Shown here piece by piece: positions 17,679 through 23,697 of a stretch of 34,552 nucleotides of DNA. The notes below the pieces were generated by a model, which worked only from the letters and a program-made list of their open reading frames with translations, was not told where the DNA came from and ran no database searches. This DNA comes from an uncultured Prevotellaceae bacterium (lineage in GTDB: Bacteria; Bacteroidota; Bacteroidia; Bacteroidales; Muribaculaceae): positions 1-34,552 of the forward strand of contig ONYP01000022.1 of assembly GCA_900322135.1 (NCBI GenBank), written 5' to 3'. Position 1 is the stretch's first letter. Each line of letters starts with the position of its first letter. Made by a program: the position numbers and the translations under genes.

Positions 17679-18572
17679 ATGACAAAGAAACAGAAGAGAA
17701 AGTTGTATTACCTGTTGGCGCTGTTGCTATTGGCACTGGCGGGATATCATGGTTACCAGAAGAGCGGCTTCTACAAGAGCGCCTATAACGAGGACCTGCC
17801 CGGCCAGGAAACCACCCGGCAGGACAGTCAGGAGGGCAAGGAGTACCAGTCTACCGGCGACCCGTCGCTGCTGGATGTGAAGTTGCCCAAGGACCTGGCC
17901 AACCAAACGGTGCGCTACAAAGCCATCACGGTATATTTCAACAAGGATTACCGTGTGCCCAACTGCGTCGCCTATGAGCTGACCAACACCATGACATCAA
18001 TGGCCGACTCGCGTGACGCCGAGAACCGTGCCGACTACAAGTTTGAGCGCGACCACGATGTCAAGGGCTGCCCCGACTGGTGGGATTACAAGGAGAGCGG
18101 CTACACACGCGGCCACATGGCCCCGGCGATGGACATGCGCTGGGACAAGACGGCGATGGAGCAGTGCTTCCTGATGACCAACATCTGTCCGCAGCTCGAT
18201 GAGATGAACGACGGCGAGTGGCGCCACATCGAGGAGGCGGTGCACAAGTGGTCACGCACGGCAGGACGCCTCATCATCTTCACGGGTCCCATCTTCACCG
18301 ACAACATGGACCGCATCGGCAAGCATGGTGACATTGCCGTCCCCGAAAGTTTCTTCAAGGTCATCTATTCGCCCAAGCAGAATAGGGCCATCGCCTTTGT
18401 GATGGAAAACAAGGGCATGCCTAACAGCTGGACCAACTACGCCACCACCATCGACAAGGTGGAGGAACTCACGGGATATGACTTCCTCGCATTGCTCCAA
18501 GACAATGTGGAGAATGTCATCGAGAGTAAAGAGAACATCAAGGACTGGCCCGCTTACTATCCACGCCGATGA
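17679..18572 (+). CDS. Membrane-anchored DNA/RNA non-specific endonuclease, copy 3
   Basis: 297 residues. The N-terminus MTKKQKRKLYYLLALLLLALAGYHGY is a basic stretch followed by one membrane helix (about 9-22), so the enzyme is anchored with its domain outside the cytosol. The nuclease domain has GYTRGHMAPAMDMRWDKTAM with catalytic His146, LMTNICPQ with metal-binding Asn168, and LIIFTGPIF. It is close to copy 2. The stop TGA overlaps the mnmE start as ATGA, so translation of mnmE is coupled to this gene, an unexpected pairing of an exported nuclease with a tRNA-modification GTPase. Confidence 0.9.
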   Translation: MTKKQKRKLYYLLALLLLALAGYHGYQKSGFYKSAYNEDLPGQETTRQDSQEGKEYQSTGDPSLLDVKLPKDLANQTVRYKAITVYFNKDYRVPNCVAYELTNTMTSMADSRDAENRADYKFERDHDVKGCPDWWDYKESGYTRGHMAPAMDMRWDKTAMEQCFLMTNICPQLDEMNDGEWRHIEEAVHKWSRTAGRLIIFTGPIFTDNMDRIGKHGDIAVPESFFKVIYSPKQNRAIAFVMENKGMPNSWTNYATTIDKVEELTGYDFLALLQDNVENVIESKENIKDWPAYYPRR

Positions 18573-19966
18573 ACAATATTGAATTAACCGCCTATTCCGG
18601 CGACACCATTTGTGCAGTCTCCACGCCACCGGGGCGCGGAGGCATCGCCGTCATCCGTGTGAGCGGCCCGCAGGCGCTCGACATCGTGCAAGGGCGTTGG
18701 CAAGGAAAACCGCTCGCCGATATGCCATCCCACACCGTCCACCTGGGACAACTGACCGACTCTAACGGCGAAATCCTTGACCAGGCGGTCCTGACCGTCT
18801 ACCACACGCCCAACTCGTTCACTGGCGAGGATGTGGTGGAACTGGCTTGCCACGGCTCGACATGGATTCAGCAGCAGGTCATCCAGACGCTGATTGATGC
18901 AGGCTGCCGCCATGCCACGGCAGGCGAATTCACACGCCGCGCCTTTGCCAACGGACGCATGGATCTGTCGCAGGCCGAGGCCGTCGCTGATGTCATCGAG
19001 GCGCAATCCCGCGCCGCCCACCGCGTGGCGATGAGCCAGATGCGCGGCCGCTACAGCGACGAGCTGAGGGGCCTGCGTGACAAACTGCTTCACTTTGTGG
19101 CACTCATCGAGCTGGAACTGGACTTCAGCGAGGAGGATGTGACCTTTGCCGACCGTAGCGAGGTGACGGCATTGGCACGCGACATCCACGCCCTCATCGG
19201 CCGCCTTGCCGACAGCTACCGTGACGGCAACGCCATCCGCAACGGCGTGCCTGTGGCCATCGTGGGCCAAACCAATGCCGGAAAATCCACATTGCTGAAC
19301 GCCCTGCTGCGTGACGACCGTGCCCTGGTGAGCGACATCCACGGCACCACGCGCGACACCATCGAGGACACCGTGATGATGGGCGGCACCCTGTACCGCT
19401 TCATCGACACCGCCGGCATCCGCCAGTCAAGCGACGCCGTCGAGCGGATGGGTATCGAGCGCACCTGGCAGGCTATTGACAAAGCCAATGTCGTGCTGTG
19501 GGTTGTCGATGTCACCAGCGCCGACACCAGCATGGCCAGCGACATCCTGACGCACTGCAACGGCAAGGCCCTCATCGCCGTGCTCAACAAGACCGACCTC
19601 GACGACGATATTGCAGCGAGGAGTGAACTCAACGACCTCCTGCCCGAGGGGACACCGGTTGTGGCCATCAGCGCCAAGTGTGACGACGACATCGAGGCCC
19701 TGCGCAGCCTCATCGTTGAGACTGCCGCCCTGCCCGATGTGGACAGCGACGCCGTCATTGTCACCAATGCCCGCCACTACCAGGCCCTGACCCGCGCACG
19801 CGATGCCATCGCCCGTGCCATCGACGGCCTGAACAGCGGCCTGAGTGGAGACCTGCTCGACCAGGACATCCGCGAATGCCTCCACTGGCTCGGCGAAATC
19901 ACCGGCGAAATCACCACCGACAACATCCTCGGCGAAATCTTCGCCCACTTCTGCATCGGCAAGTAG
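18569..19966 (+). CDS. mnmE: tRNA modification GTPase MnmE
   Basis: 465 residues. The N-terminal tetrahydrofolate-binding domain begins TICAVSTPPGRGGIAVIRVSGP. The GTPase domain has G1 GQTNAGKST (near 232), G2/G3 GTTRDTIEDT and DTAGIR, and G4 NKTDLDD. The C-terminal end FCIGK carries the conserved Cys. With MnmG it installs the carboxymethylaminomethyl group on the wobble uridine of certain tRNAs, in the cytosol. It starts by ATGA overlap with nuclease copy 3. Its last five codons and part of the stop lie in an 18-base direct repeat whose second copy is at 21716-21733, so the gene end appears to be an integration site that still encodes the complete protein. Confidence 0.97.
   Translation: MNNIELTAYSGDTICAVSTPPGRGGIAVIRVSGPQALDIVQGRWQGKPLADMPSHTVHLGQLTDSNGEILDQAVLTVYHTPNSFTGEDVVELACHGSTWIQQQVIQTLIDAGCRHATAGEFTRRAFANGRMDLSQAEAVADVIEAQSRAAHRVAMSQMRGRYSDELRGLRDKLLHFVALIELELDFSEEDVTFADRSEVTALARDIHALIGRLADSYRDGNAIRNGVPVAIVGQTNAGKSTLLNALLRDDRALVSDIHGTTRDTIEDTVMMGGTLYRFIDTAGIRQSSDAVERMGIERTWQAIDKANVVLWVVDVTSADTSMASDILTHCNGKALIAVLNKTDLDDDIAARSELNDLLPEGTPVVAISAKCDDDIEALRSLIVETAALPDVDSDAVIVTNARHYQALTRARDAIARAIDGLNSGLSGDLLDQDIRECLHWLGEITGEITTDNILGEIFAHFCIGK
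19948..19965 (+). other. Proximal att-like repeat (mnmE end)
   Basis: CTTCTGCATCGGCAAGTA; with the following G it gives the mnmE stop TAG. It is identical to 21716-21733. Confidence 0.7.
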
Positions 19967-19997
19967 AGTTTTAGAAACAACTCTGACCGTCTAGCTC

Positions 19998-20086
19998 CGG
20001 GCGAAATGTATCCAATTATTTGCAGATTTCGCCCGAAATATTCACAATTCGGGCGAAATCTATCCATTTTGAGCTAGATTTCGCCC
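19998..20086. repeat. Two tandem GGGCGAAAT hairpins next to the att-like repeat
   Basis: GGGCGAAAT at 19999-20007 and 20051-20059 each pairs with ATTTCGCCC at 20026-20034 and 20078-20086. The two 37-base units are similar throughout (TATCCA follows each left arm) and repeat with a 52-base period. A fifth GGCGAAAT lies inside mnmE at 19931-19938. They may be recombinase-binding sites, terminators of mnmE, or a structured RNA. Confidence 0.8.
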
Positions 20087-20152
20087 AAAAATCTTTGTTT
20101 ATCTCAAAGGTTTGTCGTTACTTTGCGATAGAAAACAAAATGAGTATCATCT

Positions 20153-21580
20153 ATGGAGACAATCATTGGAAGGGAACTCGAGATAAAGAGGCTAAGGGCT
20201 GCTGTTGAGAGTACCAAGCCTGAATTTGTGGCCTTGTATGGACGCAGGCGTGTGGGAAAGACTTTCTTAATCAATCAGGTCTTTCGGAATCAGTTCGTCT
20301 TCAAAATGACTGGCGTTATTGAAGGCAAACTGAGAGACCAATTTACGGCATTTGCCGATGCCATGTACGACCATGGATTCGATATGCCGGAACAGCCGAA
20401 GGACTGGATGCAGGCATTTATCATGCTGAAACATGCTTTGAAGCAGAAAGTGGAAAGTGGCGAACGATGCGTCATTTTTATTGACGAATTGCCCGCATTG
20501 GATGCCGAAGGTTCAAATGTGGCTGGGGCGGTAGGCTATTTTTGGAATAGTTGGGCAAGCCAGTACGATAACATCATTTTCATCATTTGCGGCAGTGCAA
20601 CAAGTTGGATGATCACCAATGTCATCGACAGCAAGGGAGGACTGCATGACCGCATTACAGTTGAAATGCCTATCCATCCGTTTACACTTAAAGAGGTGGA
20701 GGCTTATCTTGATAGCAAACATTTCGTTTGGAACCGTCAGATGATACTCCAAGCCTATATGGTCTTTGGAGGCATACCCTATTACTTGAGCTTGTTAGAT
20801 TCAGAGGAAAGTTTGGTACAGAATGTGGATCGCCTATTCTTCAGCCAGGACATGCAGATGCGCCGTGAGTTCCGCCGTCTTTTCAATACCCTCTATAAGA
20901 ATCCAGATAGATACATCGATATCATCAGGGCTTTGGGCAAAAGCCGCAAAGGCATGACTCGTGAGGAACTGGCAAAAGAACTGAAAAGCGCCAACAACGG
21001 TCATCTGGGAAAGCGATTGGAAGATCTCGTCCATTGTGACCTCATACGCAAGAATATTGTGCGCGAGAAGGAAATCAAGCGAAAAGATGCCATCTATCAG
21101 CTATGCGACTTTTTCAGTCTGTTCTACCTTACTTTTATCGACCGGGCAGGGGTAGAGCAACAGTACTGGGCACATCACATCAACACCCCGGAAATCAATT
21201 CCTGGATGGGGCTAACCTATGAGCGTATTTGTCTTGCTCATATCCAACAGATCAAGCATGCGCTACGAATAGATGCGATATCAACCCTCAGCTATTCCTG
21301 GCGTAGTAAAATATCCAAGCCTGCCGCCCAAATAGACATCATCATTGAGCGGGCAGACAGAATCGTCAACATATGCGAAGTGAAGTATAGCCAGAATGAA
21401 TATGAGCTGAATAAAGAGGAATACGACAAGATCTGCAAACGAAGCAATGCCTTTATTCAAGAAACAGGCCTGAGGCATGCACCTTGGATAACCATGATAA
21501 CCACCGAAGGTGTGGCACAAGGTAAATACGCTGGCATGATCCAAAGCCAGGTGAAGCTCGACGATCTATTTGCTATTTAA
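20153..21580 (+). CDS. AAA-type ATPase with C-terminal nuclease-like (DUF234) domain
   Basis: 475 residues. Residues 1-230 form an archaeal-ATPase-type domain: IGRELEIKRL at 5-14, Walker A GRRRVGKT at 30-37, Walker B CVIFIDELPAL at 106-116, and an ICGSATSWM sensor-like segment. About 260-345 looks like a winged helix (MTREELAKELKSANNGHLGKRLEDLVHCDLIRK). The C-terminus has QIDIIIE then ICEVKYS, giving Asp395, Glu409 and Lys411 in a PD-(D/E)XK arrangement. This family is widespread in Bacteroidetes and archaea and is often found on islands; its role is unclear, with defence or toxin-like functions only proposed. It is the sole gene between the two mnmE-end repeats. Confidence 0.88.
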   Translation: METIIGRELEIKRLRAAVESTKPEFVALYGRRRVGKTFLINQVFRNQFVFKMTGVIEGKLRDQFTAFADAMYDHGFDMPEQPKDWMQAFIMLKHALKQKVESGERCVIFIDELPALDAEGSNVAGAVGYFWNSWASQYDNIIFIICGSATSWMITNVIDSKGGLHDRITVEMPIHPFTLKEVEAYLDSKHFVWNRQMILQAYMVFGGIPYYLSLLDSEESLVQNVDRLFFSQDMQMRREFRRLFNTLYKNPDRYIDIIRALGKSRKGMTREELAKELKSANNGHLGKRLEDLVHCDLIRKNIVREKEIKRKDAIYQLCDFFSLFYLTFIDRAGVEQQYWAHHINTPEINSWMGLTYERICLAHIQQIKHALRIDAISTLSYSWRSKISKPAAQIDIIIERADRIVNICEVKYSQNEYELNKEEYDKICKRSNAFIQETGLRHAPWITMITTEGVAQGKYAGMIQSQVKLDDLFAI

Positions 21581-21715
21581 TCAGTCTTTATGGGGGAAAT
21601 GACCGTTAAACTAAGTCAAAAGTGTTAAATGTGAAGGCTTTGAAAGTTGTACTTCAAAACTCTACCACATTTGTATCGCTTAATATATAAATATATTATA
21701 ATCAATTAGTTACAT

Positions 21716-21733
21716 CTTCTGCATCGGCAAGTA
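21716..21733 (+). other. Distal att-like repeat
   Basis: An exact second copy of CTTCTGCATCGGCAAGTA, not in a gene; followed by ATCGAG, so the reading here would end in TAA rather than TAG. The stretch before it (21581-21715) is AT-rich with no gene. Confidence 0.7.
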
Positions 21734-21753
21734 ATCGAGTCATTTTTGAGCTT

Positions 21754-22425
21754 ATGAAAATTGAAGAATTTAGGAATTTAATGCGTATCCCTTTTGATGC
21801 TAACAACATAGAGGATCGATTTGAACAAATTGCAGAAATCCTAAAGAAGTGTTGCGTTATAGAATTTGAGGATGAGGAGTACCGAATCCTGGATTTTGAA
21901 TTCTATTTCTATAACAAAAACCATCGAGATATTTCGGTTCATCCCAGGAATTCTGATGCTTTATGCTGGTACTTCAACGATTTTGGAGGAATAGATTTAA
22001 ACTTTGAAAGTAGAATTGAAAAGGAAGCGAAGAATTCTTTAAAATACAGGCTCTCTGAGAATTCCTACTTTGGCGGTATCCTTATTCGACAAATTCAGAA
22101 CATAAAAGATGGAACGCTCTACGATGGTCCTTGGAAGGTCGCAGAGCTATTTCGAGTATTCAATGCTGCATCCCAAATGCAGAGAAATCCCATTTTAAAG
22201 ATGAGGACAATTAACCAGATAGACTTTATGGAGCCGATGGAAAGAGTCAATCTTTTGGGGAGCTACAAAGGTACCACTGACAAGGAGAAGGCCAAAGCCA
22301 AAGCTGATAATAACCTTAAGACATCTTTTGTCGGCTATTCTAAATCTGATATGAACGAATTAGAAGAGCTACTTGACCATTTCAGCAAATGCAAATATCG
22401 TTATTGCTGGAAAAAGCCAAAATGA
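21754..22425 (+). CDS. Hypothetical protein in AT-rich DNA
   Basis: 223 residues, not recognised with confidence. It starts MKIEEFRNLMRIPFDANNIEDRFEQ, has no signal peptide or membrane helix, and should be cytosolic. The segment RILDFEFYFYNKNHRDISVHPRN followed by WYFNDFGGIDLNFES and YFGGILIRQIQNI has the flavour of a single enzyme domain with conserved aromatic and acidic positions. The C-terminal part is Lys-rich and ends KYRYCWKKPK. Base use is much richer in A and T than in the neighbouring core genes, suggesting acquisition. It begins 20 bases after the distal att-like repeat and faces the deiminase gene, with a 7-base gap between stops. Confidence 0.7.
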   Translation: MKIEEFRNLMRIPFDANNIEDRFEQIAEILKKCCVIEFEDEEYRILDFEFYFYNKNHRDISVHPRNSDALCWYFNDFGGIDLNFESRIEKEAKNSLKYRLSENSYFGGILIRQIQNIKDGTLYDGPWKVAELFRVFNAASQMQRNPILKMRTINQIDFMEPMERVNLLGSYKGTTDKEKAKAKADNNLKTSFVGYSKSDMNELEELLDHFSKCKYRYCWKKPK

Positions 22426-22432
22426 ATACCGT

Positions 22433-23260
22433 CTAATTCATAAGGATATTCCACGTACAGCAGTTTAGGGCGCCGCCTTCGCTGACAACACTTTTACAAT
22501 CTTGCACTGAGTGACATTCACAGGTAGGGAATGCCTGGGCGATCTGTCTGAATGCAATCTCGCCGAGTTTGTCGTCAATCATAGGGACAAAGATATGCTG
22601 GCCCAAGTGCAGGAAGTTGAGGTATGCCCAGCTGTTGTCAGTGTAATGGCCATAATGCAGCTCGGTGATGTTGAAATGAGGACTAAGCGCCGCCAGCAGT
22701 TTCTTGCGCAGGGTTTTGTCAAAGTCGCAATAATTGTTGAGCAGCACGTTCCCGCCTCCCATATACCGCACCATGCCGTCGGCGTGTCCGTATTCTTCAT
22801 AGATGTCCCAGGGAATCAAAACAGGCTCAGCTTCCAACAATTCAGTCAGTTCTTCTATTAGCCTGTTGTGGCTATATTGTGGGTTCTCACTAAAAATTTT
22901 GTCAGTCATTATTACCTTGTCTCCACAACTGACTACGTTGCCGCCATCAATGACCAAATCGTTATCTATCACCGTCAAACCCAGTTCTGAAAGGATAGAG
23001 GAAGTGTCAGGTTTATATTCTGGAACGTTACGCAGATAGTCGGGCGTGTAGTTGAACTTTACAAACTTCGTTTCACTCACCTGCACGGGCATATAGTCGC
23101 GTGCCCAAATGTGTAAATCGGATTCGGTGCAAGGCAGTTGTTCCCACTCCACGTGATGCCTGTCAAATGACGAAAACAGAGAATCGGCTGCCTGACAATA
23201 AGCGTCTGAGCATAATCCCTTTGCTATAAAAACTTTGTTGGTTTCAAAATTGGTAATCAT
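22433..23260 (-). CDS. Agmatine deiminase / peptidyl-arginine deiminase family protein
   Basis: 275 residues from ATG 23260, preceded by AAAGGAAT; the frame extends five codons up to a TTG. Motifs of the guanidino-group-modifying fold are present: IWARDYMPVQV (the WxRDxxP motif), VIDGGNVV (substrate acid region), GHADGMVRYMGGGNVL (catalytic His) and SEGGALNCCTWN at the end, whose first Cys aligns with the nucleophile. Members hydrolyse agmatine or a terminal arginine to the ureido product plus ammonia. At 275 residues it is shorter than typical agmatine deiminases (about 350), so the substrate is uncertain. There is no signal peptide. Base use is AT-rich, like the gene it faces. Confidence 0.82.
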   Translation of the reverse strand: MITNFETNKVFIAKGLCSDAYCQAADSLFSSFDRHHVEWEQLPCTESDLHIWARDYMPVQVSETKFVKFNYTPDYLRNVPEYKPDTSSILSELGLTVIDNDLVIDGGNVVSCGDKVIMTDKIFSENPQYSHNRLIEELTELLEAEPVLIPWDIYEEYGHADGMVRYMGGGNVLLNNYCDFDKTLRKKLLAALSPHFNITELHYGHYTDNSWAYLNFLHLGQHIFVPMIDDKLGEIAFRQIAQAFPTCECHSVQDCKSVVSEGGALNCCTWNILMN

Positions 23261-23697
23261 ATTCCTTTCGTTCAATTATTCTTTTTAACCGTTGGCAGCA
23301 AAGGTCAAAAAATATCGGCGAACAAAAGAATTTTTTCTGCTAAATTCGGTTAAAGTTTCCGAAATAGTTATTTTATTAATTTATTGTTTTTCAGAGAATT
23401 ATAATATAATAATTGACTAATAAAAGACAACAGAAATATAAAATAATTGTCCTTGTTGCTTGACAAAGTGTGTTGTCGTTTGGTTTACTGGGGGAACATT
23501 TAACCATTGTCATTGAGGACGGCGTCATCTCGCTTGCTACCTGGGTTTCACAATCCCACATGGCGTCGAGAGTCTTTTGCAGCACCTCTTCAAGGGGCCA
23601 TCTCAGCATTCTGCTCTCTTTCAATCTCCTCACGGTCGCCCTTTCCCTCTCGTGACATAGAGACTGGGTGCGAATGATTACTATTTATCTGCATCGG
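23261..23697. other. Intergenic region without a convincing gene
   Basis: The first part (23261-23460) is strongly AT-rich and should hold the deiminase promoter, though no consensus box is clear. The part from about 23470 to 23690 has balanced composition and open stretches on both strands (for example a minus frame ending 23391 containing WPLEEVLQKTLDAMWDCE), but no start, ribosome site or family I recognise. It may be decayed coding DNA. Confidence 0.5.

What the first reader, a model, noticed from the sequence alone, without database searches (positions are those of the whole stretch)
19948..21733. Integrase-less island at the 3' end of mnmE carrying a lone AAA ATPase with a nuclease-like tail
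Seen: an exact 18-base repeat, CTTCTGCATCGGCAAGTA, at the end of mnmE and again 1768 bases on, bracketing one ATPase gene. Known: SGI1-family islands of gammaproteobacteria insert into these same final codons of mnmE (trmE) and regenerate the gene. Inferred: this Bacteroidales locus is a small island using the same target, and with no recombinase inside it is either a deletion remnant or a cassette moved in trans. The Walker A/B ATPase with D-ExK tail as sole cargo hints at a defence or addiction role.
Basis: partly seen in the sequence, partly recalled or inferred. Interest (0 to 1): 0.75.

Follow-up and report, generated by a model that had tools for sequence, protein, structure and literature searches.

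The report
Integrase-less defence-candidate island beside mnmE
A 1.8-kb stretch carrying one candidate phage-defence gene sits between two copies of an integration site at the end of mnmE, in a hotspot where related gut bacteria stack mobile elements one behind another.

Summary
Confirmed and enlarged. The 18-bp repeat at 19948 and 21716 is exact and not chance. In related genomes mnmE 3' ends carry tandem copies of this site with different cargo; some have tyrosine-recombinase elements there, and some show no recognised insert. The right end of the window unit (21602-21735) is a conserved ~134-bp sequence shared with units of unrelated cargo and with integrase-bearing elements. The unit looks like a CIME-type element: integrase-less, att-bounded, in an accretion array. 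Tandem sites with defence or toxin-antitoxin cargo recur at mnmE in other families of the order.

The cargo is an ORC/STAND-like ATPase with an intact PD-(D/E)xK nuclease, matching defence candidate PDC-S27. Two further findings: these ATPases carry gene-specific repeats upstream (48 of 53 versus 54 of 400 control ORFs), and away from this array they are often bracketed by long direct repeats (13 of 45 versus 3 of 573). Mobility in trans and defence activity were not shown.

The parts
18569..19966 (+). mnmE (trmE), target gene; last codons are the attachment site
   Evidence: Pfam TrmE_N, MnmE_helical, MMR_HSR1
19948..19965 (+). left copy of the 18-bp att core, inside the end of mnmE
   Evidence: exact match, chance 0.01
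19966..19997 (.). left end of the unit; by eye its first ~21 bp resemble the sequence that follows mnmE in Int389-bearing relatives and in G084
   Evidence: flank listing
19999..20034 (.). first interrupted palindrome GGGCGAAAT-N18-ATTTCGCCC upstream of the ATPase
   Evidence: at least one such palindrome upstream in 21 of 21 named relatives
20051..20086 (.). second interrupted palindrome
20153..21580 (+). cargo: AAA (ATPase_2) + winged helix + DUF234 PD-(D/E)xK nuclease, 475 aa, candidate defence family PDC-S27
21602..21715 (.). conserved right end (R-end), shared with other units and with integrase-bearing elements; presumed attP arm
21716..21733 (+). right copy of the 18-bp att core
21754..22425 (+). 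223-aa gene beyond the distal repeat, no Pfam, PADLOC, NCBIfam or PHROG match; flank of the array
22433..23275 (-). PAD_porph family gene; its homologue follows mnmE directly in G015, marking the unoccupied arrangement

Best explanation
It is an integrase-less, att-bounded islet (a CIME-type element) in a tandem-accretion hotspot at the 3' end of mnmE. Tyrosine-recombinase elements (HTH515-Int389 and HTH199-Int371 types in relatives) integrate at the last codons of mnmE and regenerate them. Each integration pushes earlier elements downstream, so att cores pile up in the same orientation. Elements decay or lose their recombinase but keep the core and the conserved right end; what is retained is often one defence-like gene. 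In the window that gene is an ORC/STAND-like ATPase with a PD-(D/E)xK nuclease, with its own palindromic repeats upstream, probably its own binding sites. Shown: repeats, shared right end, recombinases at the same site in relatives, different cargo, sites without recognised insert, intact catalytic motifs, gene-specific repeats. Inferred: the order of integration, that a resident recombinase can still move the unit, that the repeats are bound by the ATPase, and that the gene defends against phage or other mobile DNA.
For: Repeat not chance. Same-contig, same-strand copies of the mnmE-end pattern in 14 of 101 genus genomes, G000 included; the reversed control pattern matched in 3 of 101. The 134-bp right end of the window is 97% identical to that of a G081 unit whose own ATPase is only 40% identical. 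A right-end 26-mer (up to 3 mismatches) is in 20 of 101 genomes at 29 sites, control 0; 18 of the 29 are followed by an exact core (my count). Int371 elements run from mnmE to this right end on one contig in G048 (15,685 bp) and G029. Int389-type recombinase lies about 2 kb beyond mnmE in 12 genomes, 11 of them 97-100% identical in protein. G078 keeps only the right part of the Int371 element between mnmE and a right end. Seven of 19 bounded units hold one ATPase as their only CDS over 120 aa. Tandem sites at mnmE in 7 of 7 genomes fetched from other families of the order. CIME definition read in passages of PMC5704250.
Against: No relative of Int389 was found in the window's own genome (83% complete). 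In the two Int371 elements read through, the right end is followed by a degenerate core, not an exact one. The left end of the window unit is not shared with the other units, so a full attP cannot be inferred. The right end of the Int389 element was not found on the long G052 contig and is only inferred from broken contigs in G053 and others; one Int389 copy (G029:C15) is not beside mnmE. The exact junction of mnmE with the sequence after 21733 was not seen. Nearly all genus genomes are draft assemblies; 11 of 38 close relatives have a contig end within 1 kb of mnmE or inside it. The same ATPase subfamily (79-90% identical protein) lacks this right end in 17 of 21 named relatives, so the ATPase is not specific to this element.
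Confidence: 0.75

Rival explanations
1. A sharper version of the best explanation, not exclusive of it: the unit is not a decay product but a satellite cassette (core, minimal cargo, right end) that recombinases of co-resident elements move in trans.
For: Near-minimal units of 1.6-2.1 kb with only an ATPase occur seven times with two unrelated ATPase families; the right end is more alike than the cargo (97% versus 40%); G057 and G081 units also share a left-end type.
Against: Left ends differ among units with the same ATPase (window, G053, G057). A deletion derivative (G078) exists. No excised circle could be looked for; no read data were available.
Confidence: 0.3
2. The lone ATPase-nuclease is itself the mobile agent: it recognises its own repeats and moves as a single-gene unit, the mnmE array being one of many landing places.
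For: At other places 13 of 45 sampled ATPase genes are bracketed by direct repeats of 60 bits or more versus 3 of 573 control ORFs. Gene-specific repeats lie upstream. One site (L174) is occupied in 3 and empty in 22 of the 25 genomes in the listed part that have both flanks close together. Palindromes without the ATPase remain at two empty sites read (G094, G082) and in the mnmE array. One 1,826-bp block, 96.8% identical, carries a DUF4143 ATPase in different surroundings in G067 and G099.
Against: 32 of 45 show no such repeat. The repeats vary in length (38-186 bp) and identity (89-100%), unlike a target duplication of fixed length, and about half of them are the gene's own palindromes. At mnmE the ends are shared with non-ATPase units and with recombinase elements. 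One of the three occupied L174 sites (G067) holds something else, and one empty site (G013) has no palindrome left.
Confidence: 0.12
3. A local duplication or homologous recombination copied the mnmE end; no site-specific recombinase is involved.
For: In HipA islets (G012, G079) the duplicated mnmE end is longer than the core, as homologous exchange would allow.
Against: In right-end units the identity with mnmE stops at the core, and the sequence before it is a foreign conserved end. Recombinases sit at the same place in 15 genomes.
Confidence: 0.06
4. The repeat is a coincidence beside a resident ATPase gene.
For: None found.
Against: Chance 0.01; the repeat and its left flank recur with other cargo.
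Confidence: 0.01

Closest known systems
CIMEs and tandem accretion (ICESt1-related elements of Streptococcus; definition seen in passages of PMC5704250)
   Same: Lost integration and transfer genes, kept attL and attR, in tandem with ICE/IME at one target.
   Different: Bacteroidales host, mnmE target, cargo reduced to one gene, right end about 134 bp shared across unrelated cargo; cis-mobilisation untested here.
SGI1 family and other trmE islands of Gammaproteobacteria (PMC7449626, PMC8409611: search listing with start of abstract; PMC5704250: passages)
   Same: Same target, 3' end of trmE/mnmE; tandem SGI1 arrays are reported (passage).
   Different: No SGI1 backbone in the window unit; the recombinases found here were not compared with SGI1 Int.
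PDC-S27 and PDC-S01, single-gene phage-defence candidates (PADLOC; passages of PMC12988326 and PMC13356809)
   Same: Window ATPase matches PDC-S27 (E 3.1e-182); DUF4143 ATPases of other units match PDC-S01.
   Different: The passages read describe abundance, spread and domains and say that validation is pending for most; upstream repeats and att-bounded islets do not appear in those passages. The full papers were not read.
ORC/Cdc6 and STAND ATPases, including Avs3
   Same: Predicted fold matches archaeal Walker ATPases 2qen and 2fna, Cdc6/Orc1 on DNA (2qby) and, lower, Avs3 (8dgc).
   Different: Carries a C-terminal PD-(D/E)xK domain; at 475 aa it has no long sensor region as in Avs3 (about 2,000 aa chains).

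Membership tests
CIME (cis-mobilizable element) | Bounded by attL and attR with the same core | tested here: met
   Exact 18-bp core on both sides; core plus right end recurs elsewhere
CIME (cis-mobilizable element) | No recombinase and no transfer genes of its own | tested here: met
   The only ORF above 100 codons inside the unit is the ATPase
CIME (cis-mobilizable element) | Ends belong to an ICE/IME family that integrates at the same target | tested here: met
   Same right end on Int371 elements at mnmE in G048 and G029, there with a degenerate core
CIME (cis-mobilizable element) | Ends are recombined by the ICE/IME recombinase | not testable with these tools
   Needs an assay or read data
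CIME (cis-mobilizable element) | Found in tandem with ICE/IME | tested here: inconclusive
   Seen in relatives (G029 on one contig; G053 inferred over two contigs); the window has no recombinase element beside it
SGI1 family islands | Insertion into the last codons of trmE/mnmE | tested here: met
SGI1 family islands | SGI1 backbone genes (recalled: int, xis, transfer and replication genes) | tested here: not met
   Only the ATPase is present; not filed as SGI1
PDC-S27 | Match to the family profile over the whole length | tested here: met
   E 3.1e-182, residues 1-473
PDC-S27 | Protects against phage | not testable with these tools
   No assay possible
PD-(D/E)xK nuclease superfamily | Catalytic E, D, ExK residues present | tested here: met
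   E357, D395, E409, K411 invariant in 54 of 54
DDE transposon / insertion sequence | Transposase gene | tested here: not met
   No transposase domain in the one gene present
DDE transposon / insertion sequence | Terminal inverted repeats | tested here: inconclusive
   None joins the two ends among the 25 longest of 130 inverted pairs shown; the rest were not shown

The most novel reading that the evidence does not exclude
The ATPase-nucleases filed as defence candidates PDC-S27 and PDC-S01 are parasitic or satellite single-gene units. Each protein recognises its own upstream repeat set (interrupted palindromes for DUF234, about three direct repeats of roughly 30-35 nt for DUF4143) and gains or loses its place by recombination at those repeats and at borrowed att ends. 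Solo palindromes at empty sites are the footprints.
Probability: 0.2. Interest if true: 0.85.

Novelty: new variant of a known kind. Interest (0 to 1): 0.6.

Why it matters
PDC-S01 is given as the fourth most common defence across prokaryotes, and PDC-S27 was counted thousands of times (passages of PMC12988326), yet both lack a known mechanism. Finding them as sole cargo of integrase-less islets with a shared recombination end, each with its own repeat set, gives a handle on how they spread and a testable DNA ligand for each protein. It also points to the mnmE 3' end as an integration and defence hotspot in Bacteroidales. Three searches of the held library for such islands listed 15 of 51, 10 of 20 and 10 of 62 papers; by title and start of abstract, the trmE islands among them were gammaproteobacterial and none was about this target in Bacteroidales.

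Tried and rejected
Chance repeat: rejected. Insertion sequence: no transposase. ATPase always resident at mnmE: rejected; the family is multi-copy (78 of 101 genus genomes) and 17 of 21 named relatives of the window ATPase lack the right end. Palindromes as target-derived sequence: rejected for the window subfamily, since 21 of 21 named relatives carry at least one, 93 to 205 bp before the start, and palindrome likeness follows protein likeness (48 loci, Mantel r 0.65, 0 of 500 permutations). DUF4143 genes do not have palindromes more often than controls (3 of 15 versus 54 of 400, p 0.34); they have tandem direct repeats instead (21 of 27 versus 13 of 400; the 27 include near-copies, so they are not independent). 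The cut-offs were set after seeing the data.

Results against my reading: right end not found on the G052 contig; degenerate cores at the Int371 right ends; no Int389 relative in G000; mnmE joined directly to 21734 not found; one L174 insert is not an ATPase and one empty site has no palindrome. The controls included ORFs of array loci. The 40 regions fetched were picked by me from the list, not at random. Dropped rows: matches under about 60% of the query or without 200 bp upstream (69 found; 53 DUF234 and 15 DUF4143 counted), DUF234 loci with stem score under 9; one search was given 28 of the fetched loci. Lists were truncated, so tallies from them cover the listed part. Led nowhere: family libraries for the 223-aa gene at 21754; PHROGs for the ATPase; papers on DUF4143 (none, one unrelated).
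Full report
OBSERVATION. The 18-base repeat is exact at 19948-19965 and 21716-21733, with no other match at up to 3 mismatches and 0.01 expected. The first copy ends mnmE. Each copy is followed by a base that completes a stop codon. Between them lies one 475-codon gene (20153-21580), ATPase_2 plus DUF234.

THE SITE IN RELATIVES. 60 of 101 genomes match; in 14 of 101, G000 included, two or more copies lie on one contig on the same strand, 1.6 to 19 kb apart; the reversed control pattern matched in 3 of 101. I fetched 69 stretches around these sites and 20 more and mapped ORFs. Among 28 loci given to, 19 units in 15 genomes have both boundaries read. Cargo differs: a lone ATPase (window, G057, G081, G094, G067, G100, G019), an ATPase with one or two small ORFs (G053 and two units in G029), HipA (G012, G079; HTH and HipA domains in G079), a RhuM-type gene (G067, G047), a recombinase element (G047, G048) and others (G033, G064, second unit of G094).

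A SHARED RIGHT END. The sequence before many distal cores is conserved whatever the cargo. A profile of 19 copies finds it next to cores, some degenerate. The window copy (134 bp) is 97% identical to one in G081 beside an ATPase only 40% identical, 89% to the end preceding the G053 unit, and 69-94% to the others. As a 26-mer with up to 3 mismatches it is in 20 of 101 genomes at 29 sites with no control match; 18 of the 29 are followed by an exact core by my count, most of the rest by a degenerate one. Integrase-bearing elements carry it: in G048 an element of 15,685 bp runs from the mnmE core through HTH199 and Int371 to this end, and G029 shows the same on one contig, followed by two ATPase units each ending in the same sequence. 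In both, the core after the Int371 element is degenerate.

RECOMBINASES. Int389 (Phage_integrase, Phage_int_SAM_5, Arm-DNA-bind_5) lies about 2 kb beyond mnmE in 12 genomes. It is 97-100% identical in 11 of them although their mnmE proteins are only 82-90% identical to the window's, which suggests recent spread. In G100 it stands with an excisionase-like multi-HTH protein, a topoisomerase and a Mob_Pre relaxase; whether the element has its own conjugation machinery was not tested. Two more genomes have Int371 beside mnmE and one (G025) a 36% relative: 15 of 91 genomes with a detected mnmE. None was found in G000, and one Int389 copy (G029:C15) is not at mnmE.

OCCUPANCY. Among 38 genomes with mnmE at least 82% identical to the window's (G000 and a partial copy in G073 included), 11 have a contig end within 1 kb of mnmE or inside it. 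Of the 27 readable ones, by my tally, mnmE is followed by a recombinase element in 14, by an ATPase in 5, by other recombinase-less cargo in 2, and in 6 I recognised no insert. In G015 the next gene is the PAD homologue that in the window lies beyond the array; in G091 it is another gene of the window's right flank; the first ORFs in G080 and G059 are unidentified. G078 has only the right part of the Int371 element, a plain deletion derivative. The exact join of mnmE to the sequence after 21733 was not found: close homologues of the next gene (G053 96%, G071 75%) also follow a core with right end.

BEYOND THE GENUS. In 295 genomes drawn from the order, 205 match the pattern (match list truncated). 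I fetched 7 of the listed tandem cases; all 7 are beside mnmE (44-50% identical). Cargo includes SoFic alone (G194, cores 1,596 bp apart), a HipA gene with a 115-codon ORF before it (G216), a DUF4143 ATPase with DUF3843 (G200), a type IIG restriction enzyme unit behind an Int389-like element (G304) and an Int371-like element (G316). The hotspot is thus not peculiar to this genus; the right end itself was not searched outside it.

THE CARGO. In 54 aligned relatives Walker A (G35, K36), Walker B (D111, E112) and nuclease residues (E357, D395, E409, K411) are invariant. The AlphaFold2 model is good (pLDDT 91.5, pTM 0.89); its best matches are archaeal Walker ATPases 2qen and 2fna, then Cdc6/Orc1 on origin DNA (2qby), ORC subunits, STAND proteins and Avs3. 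PADLOC assigns it to PDC-S27 and the DUF4143 ATPases of sister units to PDC-S01. Passages of PMC12988326 describe these single-gene candidates as ATPase plus PD-(D/E)xK domains, validation pending for most; passages of PMC13356809 report them as abundant in the rumen.

GENE-SPECIFIC REPEATS. The window ATPase has two interrupted palindromes upstream (19999-20086). All 21 named relatives found have at least one upstream; only 4 of them have the right end, and in 16 of the other 17 homology to the window ends at or near the ATPase stop codon (the last is cut by its contig). Other DUF234 ATPases have other palindromes: 48 of 53 score at least 9, against 54 of 400 control ORFs (Fisher p 2.5e-30). 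Palindrome likeness follows protein likeness. DUF4143 ATPases have tandem direct repeats instead (21 of 27 against 13 of 400). The simplest reading is a cognate operator bound by the protein's own winged helix; this is inference.

LONE ATPASES ELSEWHERE. Of 45 DUF234 genes at other places, 13 are bracketed by direct repeats of 60 bits or more (38 to 186 bp, 89-100% identical), against 3 of 573 control ORFs (p 1.3e-13). Some repeats are host gene ends with terminators, some are the palindromes themselves. Three of 12 further DUF4143 loci show the same, two of them near-copies. At one site, in the listed part, 3 of 25 genomes with both flanks close together are occupied and 22 empty; of the three, two hold a DUF234 ATPase and one something else. 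Empty sites still hold one palindrome in G094 and G082, a degraded one in G088 and none in G013. In and near the mnmE array, GGGCGAAAT palindromes without this ATPase downstream were read in 9 genomes. These facts fit gain and loss of single-gene units but do not say what moves them.

VERDICT. The window shows a CIME-type integrase-less islet in an accretion array, a known kind of structure, in a host group and at a target for which my searches of the held library listed no earlier description. Deletion remnant and satellite moved in trans remain open. The repeat-bearing lone ATPase-nucleases are the part most worth following.

Noticed in passing
window 21754-22425; L072 3543-5039: The 223-aa gene beyond the distal repeat has no match in four family libraries; in G050 a related stretch (39% identical) is the N-terminal part of a PAD_porph protein.
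   Followed up: partly
L035, L045 (G012, G079): HipA islets at mnmE have a longer duplicated mnmE end instead of the conserved right end, so a second element family seems to use the same target.
   Followed up: partly
L208 and L209: A 1,826-bp block with a DUF4143 ATPase is 96.8% identical in G067 and G099 in different surroundings; its 70-bp end sequence recurs 3.4 kb away in L208, apparently another array site.
   Followed up: partly
L165 2432-4390: A DUF234 ATPase lies between two stretches that look like comM (recognised from memory, no family search), 98 bp repeated at 89%.
   Followed up: no
G018, G040, G045, G069, G071, G082, G088, G095 and others: Contigs end within about 150 bp of the mnmE end, as expected if the assembled populations differ at this site.
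   Followed up: no
L212 (G022): A distant species (mnmE 68% identical) has a degenerate core, a common left-end type and a palindrome identical to one in G064 and G081 just after mnmE.
   Followed up: partly
L039 6829-13788: A unit between att cores holds RhuM, a DNA methylase and an ORC-CDC6-like protein (PF24389).
   Followed up: partly
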